NCBI RefSeq assembly: GCF_003852535.1
Contig: NZ_QAJP01000004.1
Coordinates: 62,001 to 126,000, forward strand
From: Herminiimonas sp. KBW02
GTDB taxonomy: Bacteria; Pseudomonadota; Gammaproteobacteria; Burkholderiales; Burkholderiaceae_D
Direction: 5' to 3'
Length of the DNA: 64,000 bases
Part shown: in pieces, positions 23,480-26,603 of the stretch
How the letters are laid out: each line of letters opens with the position of its first letter
Position numbering within the stretch: position 1 is the first letter of the stretch
Translations under genes and position numbers: made by a program
The notes under the pieces: model-generated
Told to the model about the DNA's origin: nothing
Databases searched by the model: none
The model's input: only the letters and a program-made list of their open reading frames with translations

Positions 23480-23506
23480 TTAGCACTCTCGCCAGGCGAG
23501 TGCTAA
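23480..23506 (-). promoter_or_regulatory. CIRCE operator (HrcA binding site) of groESL
   Basis: TTAGCACTC, nine spacer bases, then GAGTGCTAA: both arms match the CIRCE consensus with no mismatch. It overlaps the predicted transcription start of groESL, so binding of the HrcA repressor would block initiation. Confidence 0.96.
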
Positions 23507-23534: not shown

Positions 23535-23703
23535 GTGATCAATATAGGAATATTGAGTATAGGACCGAGGACTTTGGATTTTTTGGACTTGAATTTAATT
23601 ACTCAGCTTTGGACTAGTGTTGGGGGAAACTACTTATATATTCTAATAGTCTTTTGAAAAAATCGAGGAAGCGCAACTCTATGATTTTGAGAGCCAAAAA
23701 CGA

Positions 23704-23732
23704 TTGTATAATTGCAAGCTGAATTCTATACT
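23704..23732 (+). promoter_or_regulatory. Predicted promoter of the Panacea/cyclase-like pair
   Basis: TTGTAT and TATACT are separated by 17 bp, placing the start near 23739, 25 bp before the DUF4065 ATG. The surrounding 23535-23763 stretch is AT-rich and holds no gene. Weak TTGTA/TACAA arms flank the -10, a possible autoregulatory site. Confidence 0.5.
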
Positions 23733-23763
23733 GTACAAATAAACAGCCCTTTAAGGTGAAAAT

Positions 23764-24225
23764 ATGTCAGCTCCCCTCCAAGTTGCAAGTGAAATAGTCC
23801 GGCAACAGACGGCAGCCGGACGGAGCGCCCCTACAAACTTAGAGTTGCAGAAGTTGCTCTACTTTTGCCATGGTTGGCATTTGGCGCTATTAAAAACACC
23901 GCTTGTAGATGAGTCTTTTGAGGCGTGGAGATATGGACCTGTGTTGCCTAGTGTTTATCAAGCATTCAAGGTGTTTTCGTCTAATCCGATACCAGCAGAT
24001 CATCCATTGATTGCTCAACAACCCGCACTTACTAATGTTGATTCTGCTGCATTGGTGCGCAAAGTATTAGATGTTTATGGCAATCATTCTGGCTACCAAT
24101 TGGTTAATCTTTCTCACCACCCGGATGGCCCTTGGAAGCAAGTATGGAATTCGGGATCCAGTTTTAGCGACACAATAGATGACGCTATGATCCTTAATTA
24201 TTTCTCTAGTTTGGCAAATCACTAA
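23764..24225 (+). CDS. Panacea domain protein (DUF4065, SocA/GepA-like), putative antitoxin
   Basis: A 153-residue protein that reads across its length as a DUF4065/Panacea domain: NLELQKLLYFCHGWHLAL (residues about 26-43), then FEAWRYGPVLPSVYQAFK, and LSHHPDGPWKQVW near the C-terminus. Panacea domains are known as the neutralising part of many type II toxin-antitoxin pairs (PanA) and as the SocA proteolytic adaptor antitoxin. AAGGTG lies before the ATG and a good promoter lies upstream. The next gene starts 3 bp after the stop, so the two are almost certainly co-expressed. Base composition is clearly lower in GC than the flanking groESL and amidase genes, suggesting horizontal gain. Confidence 0.88.
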   Translation: MSAPLQVASEIVRQQTAAGRSAPTNLELQKLLYFCHGWHLALLKTPLVDESFEAWRYGPVLPSVYQAFKVFSSNPIPADHPLIAQQPALTNVDSAALVRKVLDVYGNHSGYQLVNLSHHPDGPWKQVWNSGSSFSDTIDDAMILNYFSSLANH

Positions 24226-24228
24226 ACG

Positions 24229-25164
24229 ATGGCTGATTCGCATGTTATTAAAGGAGAGGTAGTGCCCTCGCTGGATAAAGTCAAATTACCTGAACAGGTG
24301 TCTTCGGAAAGTGGTGGGCTTGTTGAGTTCGCAGATAGCCCGAAAGGCGTGAAATACGAGGAGCGAGTTGTTGCGTTTGTCGATATTCTCGGTTTTAGCG
24401 AAATTATTAGAAAATCTAGAAGCGACCCGGAATTGGTTGCTCGTATTTTTGATGCGTTAGATGTGCGCAATGATGATTGGGCGAAGGTGTACGCTGCAGA
24501 AATTGGGGCAGTCAAGAATCCAGAAGAGTTTGATGAATTCTTTTATTCTTTTTCAGATTTCATAACTATGTCAGTCAAGCCAGAGGCTGAGGATATAGGT
24601 TTATTGATTTATACAATTTTCAAAGTATGTCGTCAGCTGTTAGGACGAGGTTTTGCAAGTCGAGGTGGGATCGCTGAAGGGCAGCTTTTTCACCGGAATG
24701 GAAATGTCGCCGAGGGGAAAGCTAGCGCTGCATCTTCTATGATTTTTGGGCCAGCTTTTATTGATGCGTATCAATTTGAGTCTGCCCATGCAGATGGGCC
24801 TCGTGTGATTTTGCAGGGAAAAGTTTGGCAAAAAATAGAAGATTACAAACGAAAAAATCCAAATACCAAACTCACTAAATTTTTTAAAGTACATATTAAA
24901 AGGGCAGAGGACGGCCCCGCGTTTATTGATTTATTCGCAGATTTTCATACGAATGAATACTATGAAAATCATCGTGATCTTGATTCTGAAATGGATCGTA
25001 TTAAGAATTACATATGCGAGTCATTGGATGAATCAATTGATCGTCCCCTTCATTTTAAAAAGAATGCTCAGCTTGCGAATGAGTTTAATCTAGCTATACG
25101 TACAGCCGAAAAGCATGCACATATGATTCCTGGTTCAAAATTGCCAAAGCGCTCTAACTCTTAA
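24229..25164 (+). CDS. Class III nucleotide-cyclase-like protein, putative Panacea partner
   Basis: A 311-residue soluble protein without close functional label. Residues 47-190 follow the class III adenylate/guanylate cyclase order: AFVDILGFSEII (metal Asp 52), FFYSFSDFITMS (second metal-type Asp 110), FASRGGIAEGQ (145 region), GPAFIDAYQFESA (174-186). In the last block the positions that are Asn and Arg in active cyclases read Ile178 and Gln182, so activity is doubtful. The N-terminal 40 residues are hydrophilic. The C-terminal 110 residues are charged and match nothing I know. The 3-bp gap to the Panacea gene makes it the natural toxin or effector candidate. Low GC as for its partner. Confidence 0.62.
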   Translation: MADSHVIKGEVVPSLDKVKLPEQVSSESGGLVEFADSPKGVKYEERVVAFVDILGFSEIIRKSRSDPELVARIFDALDVRNDDWAKVYAAEIGAVKNPEEFDEFFYSFSDFITMSVKPEAEDIGLLIYTIFKVCRQLLGRGFASRGGIAEGQLFHRNGNVAEGKASAASSMIFGPAFIDAYQFESAHADGPRVILQGKVWQKIEDYKRKNPNTKLTKFFKVHIKRAEDGPAFIDLFADFHTNEYYENHRDLDSEMDRIKNYICESLDESIDRPLHFKKNAQLANEFNLAIRTAEKHAHMIPGSKLPKRSNS

Positions 25165-25478
25165 TAATTTAGTGCATATCCGCTTAGTAATCGAATAGGA
25201 CCATTTCGGTCGGTAGATAGCGTTGCGCCTTACGACATTTCAATAGAAGTACATTTTCTTTGAATGGATATAGGGATATGTCCTCATTTCAGGCAATCAA
25301 AGTTGTGAAAATTTGGTGGTATTAATGGGGAGTTGATCGCAGTCTGATGGCCTACCATCAGAGATGGTGACACCAGAGACCATACGGGTACTGTATGGTG
25401 TAGATGTGGCAGCCTTCCATTCGCTGCATGGCCATGTAGCGTTTCATCCGGTGTCACGATAACTTTCATCCAGACATG
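25165..25478. other. Intergenic region with clustered inverted repeats
   Basis: A 314-bp gap between two converging transcription units. It holds TCTGATGG-CCTA-CCATCAGA (25343-25362) and ACCATAC/GTATGGT (25379-25399). GCAGC/GCTGC (25409-25427) and the palindrome CATGGCCATG (25427-25436) follow. An outer pair TGACACC/GGTGTCA (25368-25374 with 25450-25456) would close the last three into a branched structure. A 61-codon frame on the reverse strand (25469-25284) starts 10 bp after the DUF1116 stop but matches nothing. No T-tract terminator is present. Confidence 0.5.
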
Positions 25479-26603
25479 CTATTTTGCGCGTGCGACCTCG
25501 TTTGGATCCGCAAACAACTCCGTAGACACCTCAAACACCCCACGTCCTATTAAGCCCGCTTCCGCTGCATGATCCAGTATCGCCAGATTGACCATAGGCG
25601 GGCAATCATTGCTCAGTATGCTTTTCAAATCAACGATACCGCTGCGGGAGTTCACGACTTGTGATCTGTGCATGTGCAAGTCTTCCGGCAAATATTGTGC
25701 CCAATCCCGCGCCAGGCTGGGTACGTAAGCGAGCGCTTGTGCGCCCAGTCCCGAGAAATCAATGACGGCGCTGTCGCCTATCGCGCCCAATGCAGTCGTG
25801 AGTTCGTGCCCGACAAAGCGGGTACCTTGTGGTGGCGTGGCGGGTATGGTTTGCCAGATAGACGTATCGCGCAGGCGATAACCGAAGGCGAGGCCGTTAC
25901 CACCTGCAGCGACGATATGACCGGTTTGTTCCAGGCGCAGCGAGCATGCTGCCATCAGCAACGGTAGTACAAAACCGGGGTTGGCGAGTATGACTTGTCT
26001 GTCTCGTGCGTGTAGTGCATCCAGCTGTGCCGCCAGTGCCGCATTGGCACGTGCGGTGAGTGCATGGCATTCTTCGCCGCCTTGCAACGCATAGTGTATG
26101 GCTGGCGACAGTGCGGGTGGATGCGCTTGTACAACTGGTTTTAATACATGCATGCCGAATTGCGACAACAGTTGCAACTGCGCGCGTGTACCGGCTACCG
26201 GTTTGCCGAAGCGCAGTGCGGGCGCAGGTCCTTCCACCAGCGGCGCATAGCGCGTGCTGTCATTGCTACGGACGACGAACAGCGGCATGGAGGCTGATAC
26301 CACTTGTGCCAGTGGCGTGACCAGACCGTGATCCTGCGCCGGGAGCAGCTTGATTTTTTCTTGTGCCAGCAGCTCTGTCGCAGCGCCATGATCGTCAGCA
26401 AGTCCTTCAAACAGGATGGCTTCGATCGCCGCCTGGCGGATCGGGGCTGGTAGCTCACCTGTCAACGGTGGGCCAGCGTGCAGGAGTACATAGTCTGAAA
26501 GATCAGGCAATGCCTGTGTACGTAGCTGAACATCGGTCCAGCGTATGTCGTCGTAGCGGCTGGCTATTTGTACGATTTCTTCATCGAACTTGCTGGTAGT
26601 CAT
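25479..26603 (-). CDS. DUF1116 family protein (AllG/YlbE-like)
   Basis: A 374-residue protein of the DUF1116 family, whose E. coli member AllG (YlbE) belongs to the oxamate carbamoyltransferase gene set. Seen: an N-terminal region DIRWTDVQLRTQALPDLSDY, a mid segment HYALQGGEECHALTARANAAL (catalytic-looking E-E-C-H), and IVAAGGNGLAFGYRLRD with VGHELTTALGAIGDSAVIDFSGLGAQAL, the conserved glycine-rich C-terminal part. ATG at 26603 is used; the longer open frame overlaps the amidase gene. It is the last gene of the reverse-strand catabolic operon, 19 bp after the amidase. The usual partners AllF (FdrA) and AllH are absent here. A carbamoyl-group transfer role is inference. Confidence 0.8.
   Translation of the reverse strand: MTTSKFDEEIVQIASRYDDIRWTDVQLRTQALPDLSDYVLLHAGPPLTGELPAPIRQAAIEAILFEGLADDHGAATELLAQEKIKLLPAQDHGLVTPLAQVVSASMPLFVVRSNDSTRYAPLVEGPAPALRFGKPVAGTRAQLQLLSQFGMHVLKPVVQAHPPALSPAIHYALQGGEECHALTARANAALAAQLDALHARDRQVILANPGFVLPLLMAACSLRLEQTGHIVAAGGNGLAFGYRLRDTSIWQTIPATPPQGTRFVGHELTTALGAIGDSAVIDFSGLGAQALAYVPSLARDWAQYLPEDLHMHRSQVVNSRSGIVDLKSILSNDCPPMVNLAILDHAAEAGLIGRGVFEVSTELFADPNEVARAK

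What the first reader, a model, noticed from the sequence alone, without database searches (positions are those of the whole stretch)
23704..25164. Panacea-domain protein paired with a class III cyclase-like protein: candidate new toxin-antitoxin or defence module
The sequence shows a DUF4065/Panacea gene and, 3 bp after its stop, a 311-residue gene whose conserved blocks follow the class III nucleotide cyclase order. A promoter (TTGTAT-17-TATACT) lies just upstream, and the unit is AT-richer than groESL and the amidase operon around it. Panacea domains are known antitoxin modules that pair with many unrelated toxins. A cyclase-like partner is not one I can name from the described sets. It would link a known antitoxin fold to cyclic-nucleotide signalling as in Pycsar. 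The role is inference.
Basis: partly seen in the sequence, partly recalled or inferred. Interest (0 to 1): 0.78.

Follow-up and report, generated by a model that had tools for sequence, protein, structure and literature searches.

The report
Panacea antitoxin with cyclase-fold partner
Two neighbouring bacterial genes look like a toxin-antitoxin pair in which a Panacea-domain antitoxin restrains a toxin shaped like a nucleotide cyclase, a kind of pair already demonstrated once in a Burkholderia prophage and found here as a mobile unit in several unrelated places.

The parts
23557..25504 (.). variable segment between the groES upstream region and the AllG-like gene; GC 0.418; not found by DNA search in the 12 other genomes held of the genus
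   Evidence: similarity to the nearest genome (G1115) stops at query base 586 and resumes at 2533; about 3.0 kb with an inverse-autotransporter gene and a 194-aa ORF fills its slot
23704..23732 (+). weak promoter-like hexamer pair TTGTAT-17-TATACT
   Evidence: present; no excess of promoter-like sites over shuffles
23753..23759 (+). AAGGTGA, ribosome-binding-like, 4 bp before the first ATG
23764..24225 (+). PanA-like antitoxin: 153 aa, one Panacea (SocA/DUF4065) domain at residues 28-125, no significant Pfam match to an extra domain
   Evidence: Pfam PF13274 E 1.6e-19; NCBIfam NF047745 118.7 bits, below its equivalog cut-off of 190
24229..25164 (+). PanT-like putative toxin: 311 aa, low-confidence N-terminal extension of about 42 aa, class III cyclase-like domain (about residues 39-241), two C-terminal helices
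24382..24384 (+). codon of D52, first predicted metal-binding Asp (FVDILGF)
   Evidence: 64 of 64 rows of alignment A9; codon place
24556..24558 (+). codon of D110, second predicted metal-binding Asp (FSD)
   Evidence: 64 of 64 rows of alignment A9; codon place; assignment by motif order

Best explanation
A horizontally acquired type II toxin-antitoxin module of the PanAT kind. The upstream Panacea protein binds and silences the downstream cyclase-fold protein; when the antitoxin is lost, or senses a trigger such as phage infection, the toxin acts on a nucleoside triphosphate through a two-metal site (D52, D110) and stops growth, probably by shutting down transcription and translation. Shown here: domain, predicted fold, gene order, recurrence, clade, variable insertion site. 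Inferred: toxicity, neutralisation, enzymatic activity, product, trigger, and any role against phages.
For: Panacea domain by Pfam in 6 of 6 partners. Pair recurs, Panacea upstream on the same strand, from a 4-bp overlap to a 13-bp gap, in six places. The six cyclase-like proteins are one side of a branch: SH-aLRT 94 with 113 rows, 100/92 with 56 rows. Among adjacent same-strand ORFs, Panacea is the only family found beside more than two of the 114 loci. Distances of the two partners correlate (Mantel r 0.69, 24 of 720 permutations as high). Paired proteins carry 36-63 residues before the conserved Tyr (unpaired median 7; 3 of 58 rows with 30 or more), and R135 and A231 are in 6 of 6 paired and 0 of 58 unpaired rows: candidate antitoxin contacts. 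Fold. Variable slot. Two copies lie beside phage head and terminase genes. Precedent: PMC8832971 validated a Panacea plus putative nucleotide-cyclase pair by neutralisation and pull-down (passages).
Against: No experiment on this pair. The Asn and Arg positions of canonical class III cyclases are not kept (I178, Q182 here), so enzymatic activity is uncertain. Foldseek TM-scores are modest (0.32-0.40 by the model's length, 0.20-0.64 by the target's). The broader family lives without Panacea (108 of 114 loci), so the cyclase-like protein need not be toxic by nature. The fused antitoxin-toxin model gave pTM 0.64 and no interface score, which says nothing about binding. The distance correlation rests on six pairs. 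Relatives were sampled through short conserved patterns and capped lists (one search kept 80 of 168).
Confidence: 0.72

Rival explanations
1. A Pycsar-like signalling pair: the cyclase makes a cyclic nucleotide on infection and a separate receptor kills the cell; Panacea only controls the cyclase.
For: Class III cyclase fold with two conserved Asp; a 258-aa ORF with hydrophobic stretches follows the pair in Neptunomonas L060, and a GGDEF-EAL gene comes after it.
Against: No Pfam cyclic-nucleotide-binding domain in the 16 flanking proteins scanned from the six loci. Canonical Asn and Arg positions are not kept. No PADLOC hit for this protein; among 67 members four PADLOC models each hit one member weakly, best E 3.4e-4, none described as a cyclase.
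Confidence: 0.1
2. A toxin that is a pseudo-cyclase: it binds nucleotides or a host target with the cyclase fold but does no cyclase chemistry.
For: Asn and Arg positions replaced; the tested Burkholderia prophage toxin left ATP unchanged and GTP only slightly lower (passage of PMC8832971).
Against: D52, D110, R145, E184 and K278 are invariant in 64 of 64 rows, which suggests a kept active site.
Confidence: 0.12
3. Not a toxin-antitoxin pair: an ordinary two-gene regulatory or metabolic unit.
For: Most sampled relatives of the second gene stand without Panacea.
Against: Scattered, AT-rich distribution, variable insertion slot, prophage cargo positions and Panacea linkage in one clade.
Confidence: 0.06

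Closest known systems
PanA-PanT of Burkholderia prophage phi52237 (Kurata et al. 2022, PMC8832971)
   Same: Panacea antitoxin with a partner that has no CDD hit and that HHpred likens to adenylate/guanylate cyclase; prophage-borne, as is L044 here, a P2-like prophage
   Different: That pair was tested; this one was not. No direct sequence comparison was made. tblastn with two members of the clade found nothing in the phages collection (window at E up to 0.01; L044 at E up to 10). L044 scores 698 bits against PHROG 21097, so PHROGs holds a close phage copy, but its members are not named
Pycsar pyrimidine cyclases (PycC; passages of PMC11224242)
   Same: class III cyclase fold and two catalytic Asp
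   Different: Panacea partner and no cyclic-nucleotide-binding protein among the flanking genes scanned; not compared by sequence
SocAB (SocA antitoxin, NCBIfam NF047745)
   Same: Panacea-type antitoxin domain
   Different: below the SocA equivalog cut-off (118.7 of 190 bits); SocB is recalled and was not compared
PHROG 21097 and PHROG 23933 (unknown function)
   Same: 21097 matches the six paired proteins, E 1.9e-35 to 2.7e-210
   Different: the four unpaired proteins tested (two of them identical) fit 23933 better and match 21097 more weakly, E 3.3e-10 to 6.4e-19; no function assigned to either

Membership tests
PanAT type II toxin-antitoxin systems | antitoxin gene with a Panacea (DUF4065) domain | tested here: met
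   PF13274 E 1.6e-19 here, 6 of 6 partners
PanAT type II toxin-antitoxin systems | conserved two-gene unit in unrelated genomes | tested here: met
   six places, same order and strand
PanAT type II toxin-antitoxin systems | partner is toxic and Panacea neutralises it by direct binding | not testable with these tools
   needs expression and pull-down; fused model inconclusive
PanAT with putative nucleotide-cyclase toxin (phi52237 type) | toxin homologous to the validated PanT | not tested
class III nucleotide cyclase fold | cyclase homology domain fold | tested here: met
class III nucleotide cyclase (active, canonical) | two metal-binding Asp | tested here: met
   D52 and D110 in 64 of 64 rows; D110 is assigned by motif order and fold, as hhalign did not align that region reliably
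class III nucleotide cyclase (active, canonical) | transition-state Asn and Arg (roles recalled) | tested here: not met
   hhalign places them at 178 (I29 V22 N8 L4 H1 of 64) and 182 (R in 8 of 64, none of the 6 paired)
Guanylate_cyc PF00211 | Pfam profile match | tested here: not met
   no family at E up to 1 for this protein; not among the 25 of 29 families listed for 67 relatives; no PF00211 match at E up to 0.001 in the whole genome
Pycsar | neighbouring receptor with cyclic-nucleotide-binding domain | tested here: not met
   none in 16 flanking proteins: 4 of the window, 2 of L006, 4 of L058, 3 of L059, 2 of L060, 1 of L044

The most novel reading that the evidence does not exclude
A widespread, unnamed family of cyclase-fold proteins, which keeps two conserved Asp but has its own invariant set (R145, E184, K278) in place of the usual Asn and Arg, performs a chemistry other than 3',5'-cyclisation, and one clade was captured once by Panacea and made into a toxin whose product poisons transcription.
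Probability: 0.2. Interest if true: 0.72.

Novelty: new member of a known kind. Interest (0 to 1): 0.42.

Why it matters
The 2022 study rested on a single cyclase-like PanT of unknown chemistry. If the six pairs described here are its relatives, they give a clade, candidate antitoxin-contact residues and candidate active-site residues, so that the open question of what this toxin makes or attacks becomes testable with sequences from other bacteria.

Tried and rejected
The first genome-contig scan and the first two viral-contig scans found no relatives with the patterns the tool chose; later scans did. Nucleotide search for the module in plasmids: no match. phmmer against PDB sequences: none; with a 67-row profile the first cyclase had E 0.57, not significant, behind a designed helical bundle at 0.25. 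Viral structure library: two matches at E up to 0.001, one unnamed, one a 'response regulator' of a giant virus. Fused antitoxin-toxin model: inconclusive. E. coli phage PhiR47_1 is annotated PanA-PanT but its PanT gene encodes only 182 aa (not compared by sequence). Pycsar PycC does not appear in the structure rows shown, which is no exclusion. The promoter argument was dropped. An earlier wording that Panacea is the only shared neighbour was mended: L100 and L132, of different bacteria, also share an upstream ORF family.

Full report
1. The observation. The window holds two genes on the + strand, 23764-24225 (153 aa) and 24229-25164 (311 aa), three bases apart. The first has a Pfam Panacea domain (E 1.6e-19) and matches NCBIfam's SocA model below its cut-off. 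The second has no match in Pfam, NCBIfam or PADLOC at E up to 1, nor in PDB sequences. The quoted promoter letters are present but weak and not in excess of chance. The module is AT-rich (GC 0.422; window 0.539). Its neighbours are groES and groEL on one side and an AllG-like gene, then an amidase gene, on the other (Pfam).

3. Active-site residues. Alignment A9 holds 64 rows (62 different sequences), chosen by length, score and completeness out of 119 loci with the gene; rows from the plasmid collection and long, short or odd rows were left out. In it F50, D52, G55, F56, S109, D110, R145, G146, G174, E184 and K278 are invariant; R192 and D228 are kept in 62, H155 in 61. D52 (FVDILGF) sits at the first metal-binding Asp by alignment; D110 (FSD) is assigned to the second by motif order and fold, since the profile alignment is unreliable there. 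The positions of the canonical Asn (178) and Arg (182) are not conserved: N in 8 of 64 and R in 8 of 64; among the six paired proteins N in 2 and R in none. Recalled knowledge: these two residues stabilise the transition state in class III cyclases. The chemistry is therefore an open question.

4. Recurrence of the pair. Relatives were collected from samples of the order (7 of 399 genomes), class (6 of 369) and phylum (6 of 398), own genome counted each time; from plasmids (4 records), viral contigs (13 loci; the L044 place again) and genome contigs (168 relatives carrying one of two short patterns, the best 80 kept; the other 88 were not seen). Of 119 loci with the cyclase-like gene, ten also hold a Panacea gene (own profile, E up to 0.001); these are six places: the window; G232, between a tyrosyl-tRNA synthetase and a YchF-type GTPase gene; IMG/VR L044; Novispirillum itersonii L058; Achromobacter sp. 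L059; Neptunomonas marina L060. After dropping five repeated loci, 114 remain: 6 with Panacea and 108 without, two of the 108 being identical copies of others (106 different). 101 of the 108 hold at least 500 bases on both sides. Of the 80 genome-contig loci, the three with Panacea have the three best E-values. Panacea lies directly upstream on the same strand each time, from a 4-bp overlap to a 13-bp gap (ORF coordinates). Pfam confirms Panacea in 6 of 6. A search of 389 genomes of the order with PHROG 21097 found 2 at E up to 1e-15, the own genome and G232, both paired. Among ORFs directly beside the 114 genes on the same strand, Panacea is the only family seen more than twice.

5. One clade. 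With 113 rows (110 different) the six paired proteins are one side of a branch, SH-aLRT 94, against a shuffled mean of 5.9 changes (0 of 500 as low). With 56 rows (6 paired and the 50 nearest unpaired, after leaving out 13 long or short loci) support is 100/92. Partner distances correlate (Mantel r 0.69, 24 of 720). The paired proteins have 36-63 residues before the conserved Tyr43 column against a median of 7 in 58 unpaired rows (3 of 58 have 30 or more), and R135 and A231 are in 6 of 6 paired and 0 of 58 unpaired rows. I read these as candidate antitoxin contacts (inference).

6. Mobility. With DNA from groES to the AllG-like gene as query, the groES-side flank is found in 12 of 13 genomes of the genus, own included, and the module only in the own genome. 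In the nearest genome (G1115) the slot between groES and the AllG-like gene, about 3.0 kb, holds an inverse-autotransporter gene and a 194-aa ORF without Pfam match. Eleven slots were read; one genome had no match, and a second groES-like place in G1122 was not read. In each of the six places the module has lower GC than the locus or window held. L044 lies next to portal and terminase genes of a P2-like prophage 85-86% identical to Burkholderia phages Milagro, Musica and KL3; in KL3 the place beyond the portal gene holds HNH, EcoRII-type restriction-modification and Vsr genes, that is, defence cargo. L058 lies between a phage head-to-tail connector gene and a terminase small-subunit gene.

7. 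What is known. Kurata et al. 2022 (PMC8832971; passages seen) named DUF4065 Panacea and validated nine pairs. [quoted passage not shown] The 2023 follow-up (PMC10440598; passages seen) finds Panacea neutralising either directly or through added domains; the protein here shows no added Pfam domain. In the open PMC library 'Panacea domain' with antitoxin and cyclase gave these two papers, DUF4065 with cyclase only the first, and phi52237 with Panacea only the first.

8. Is it the same toxin family? Not tested directly (referred). The six paired proteins match PHROG 21097, E 1.9e-35 to 2.7e-210; L044 scores 698 bits over 311 residues, so PHROGs holds a close phage copy. The four unpaired proteins tested (L018, L062, L013, L061; the first two identical) fit PHROG 23933 better but also match 21097 (E 3.3e-10 to 6.4e-19). 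tblastn of the window protein (E up to 0.01) and of the L044 protein (E up to 10) found nothing in the phages collection, so that collection seems to lack the record behind the PHROG. Since phi52237 is, by recall, a P2-like Burkholderia phage, membership is likely but unproven.

9. Verdict. A new member of a known kind: a mobile PanAT toxin-antitoxin unit with a class III cyclase-fold toxin, confidence about 0.7. A role in phage defence is plausible from the prophage cargo positions but not shown.

Noticed in passing
window 23480-23506: Perfect CIRCE-type inverted repeat TTAGCACTC-N9-GAGTGCTAA upstream of groES (name recalled); one match in the window, none in 100 shuffles.
   Followed up: yes
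family of window 24229-25164 in L002-L137: A large family of cyclase-fold proteins in several bacterial phyla and one archaeal bin has no Pfam family: in 67 members no family at E up to 1 matched more than two (25 of 29 families shown). It keeps two Asp but not the usual Asn and Arg.
   Followed up: partly
L002 259-4843 and L003 1141-4747: Unpaired relatives on Agrobacterium plasmids lie next to a Dsr1 defence sirtuin gene and near AbiEii-type and PP2C genes, which hints at a defence setting for the wider family.
   Followed up: no
L174 2223-6911 (Burkholderia phage KL3): The place beyond the portal gene, where L044 carries the Panacea pair, holds HNH, EcoRII-type restriction-modification and Vsr genes in KL3.
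   Followed up: partly
L060 4887-5663: A 258-aa ORF with hydrophobic stretches (by reading) and no Pfam match starts 31 bp after the pair in Neptunomonas.
   Followed up: no
L100 3450-3941 and L132 306-773: Two unpaired relatives in different bacteria share an upstream ORF family of about 160 aa.
   Followed up: no
L033/L042 (G045 contig 93): Two Panacea genes in tandem, about 1 kb start to start.
   Followed up: no
own genome G000: No PF00211 match at E up to 0.001 in the whole genome and only one Panacea gene.
   Followed up: yes
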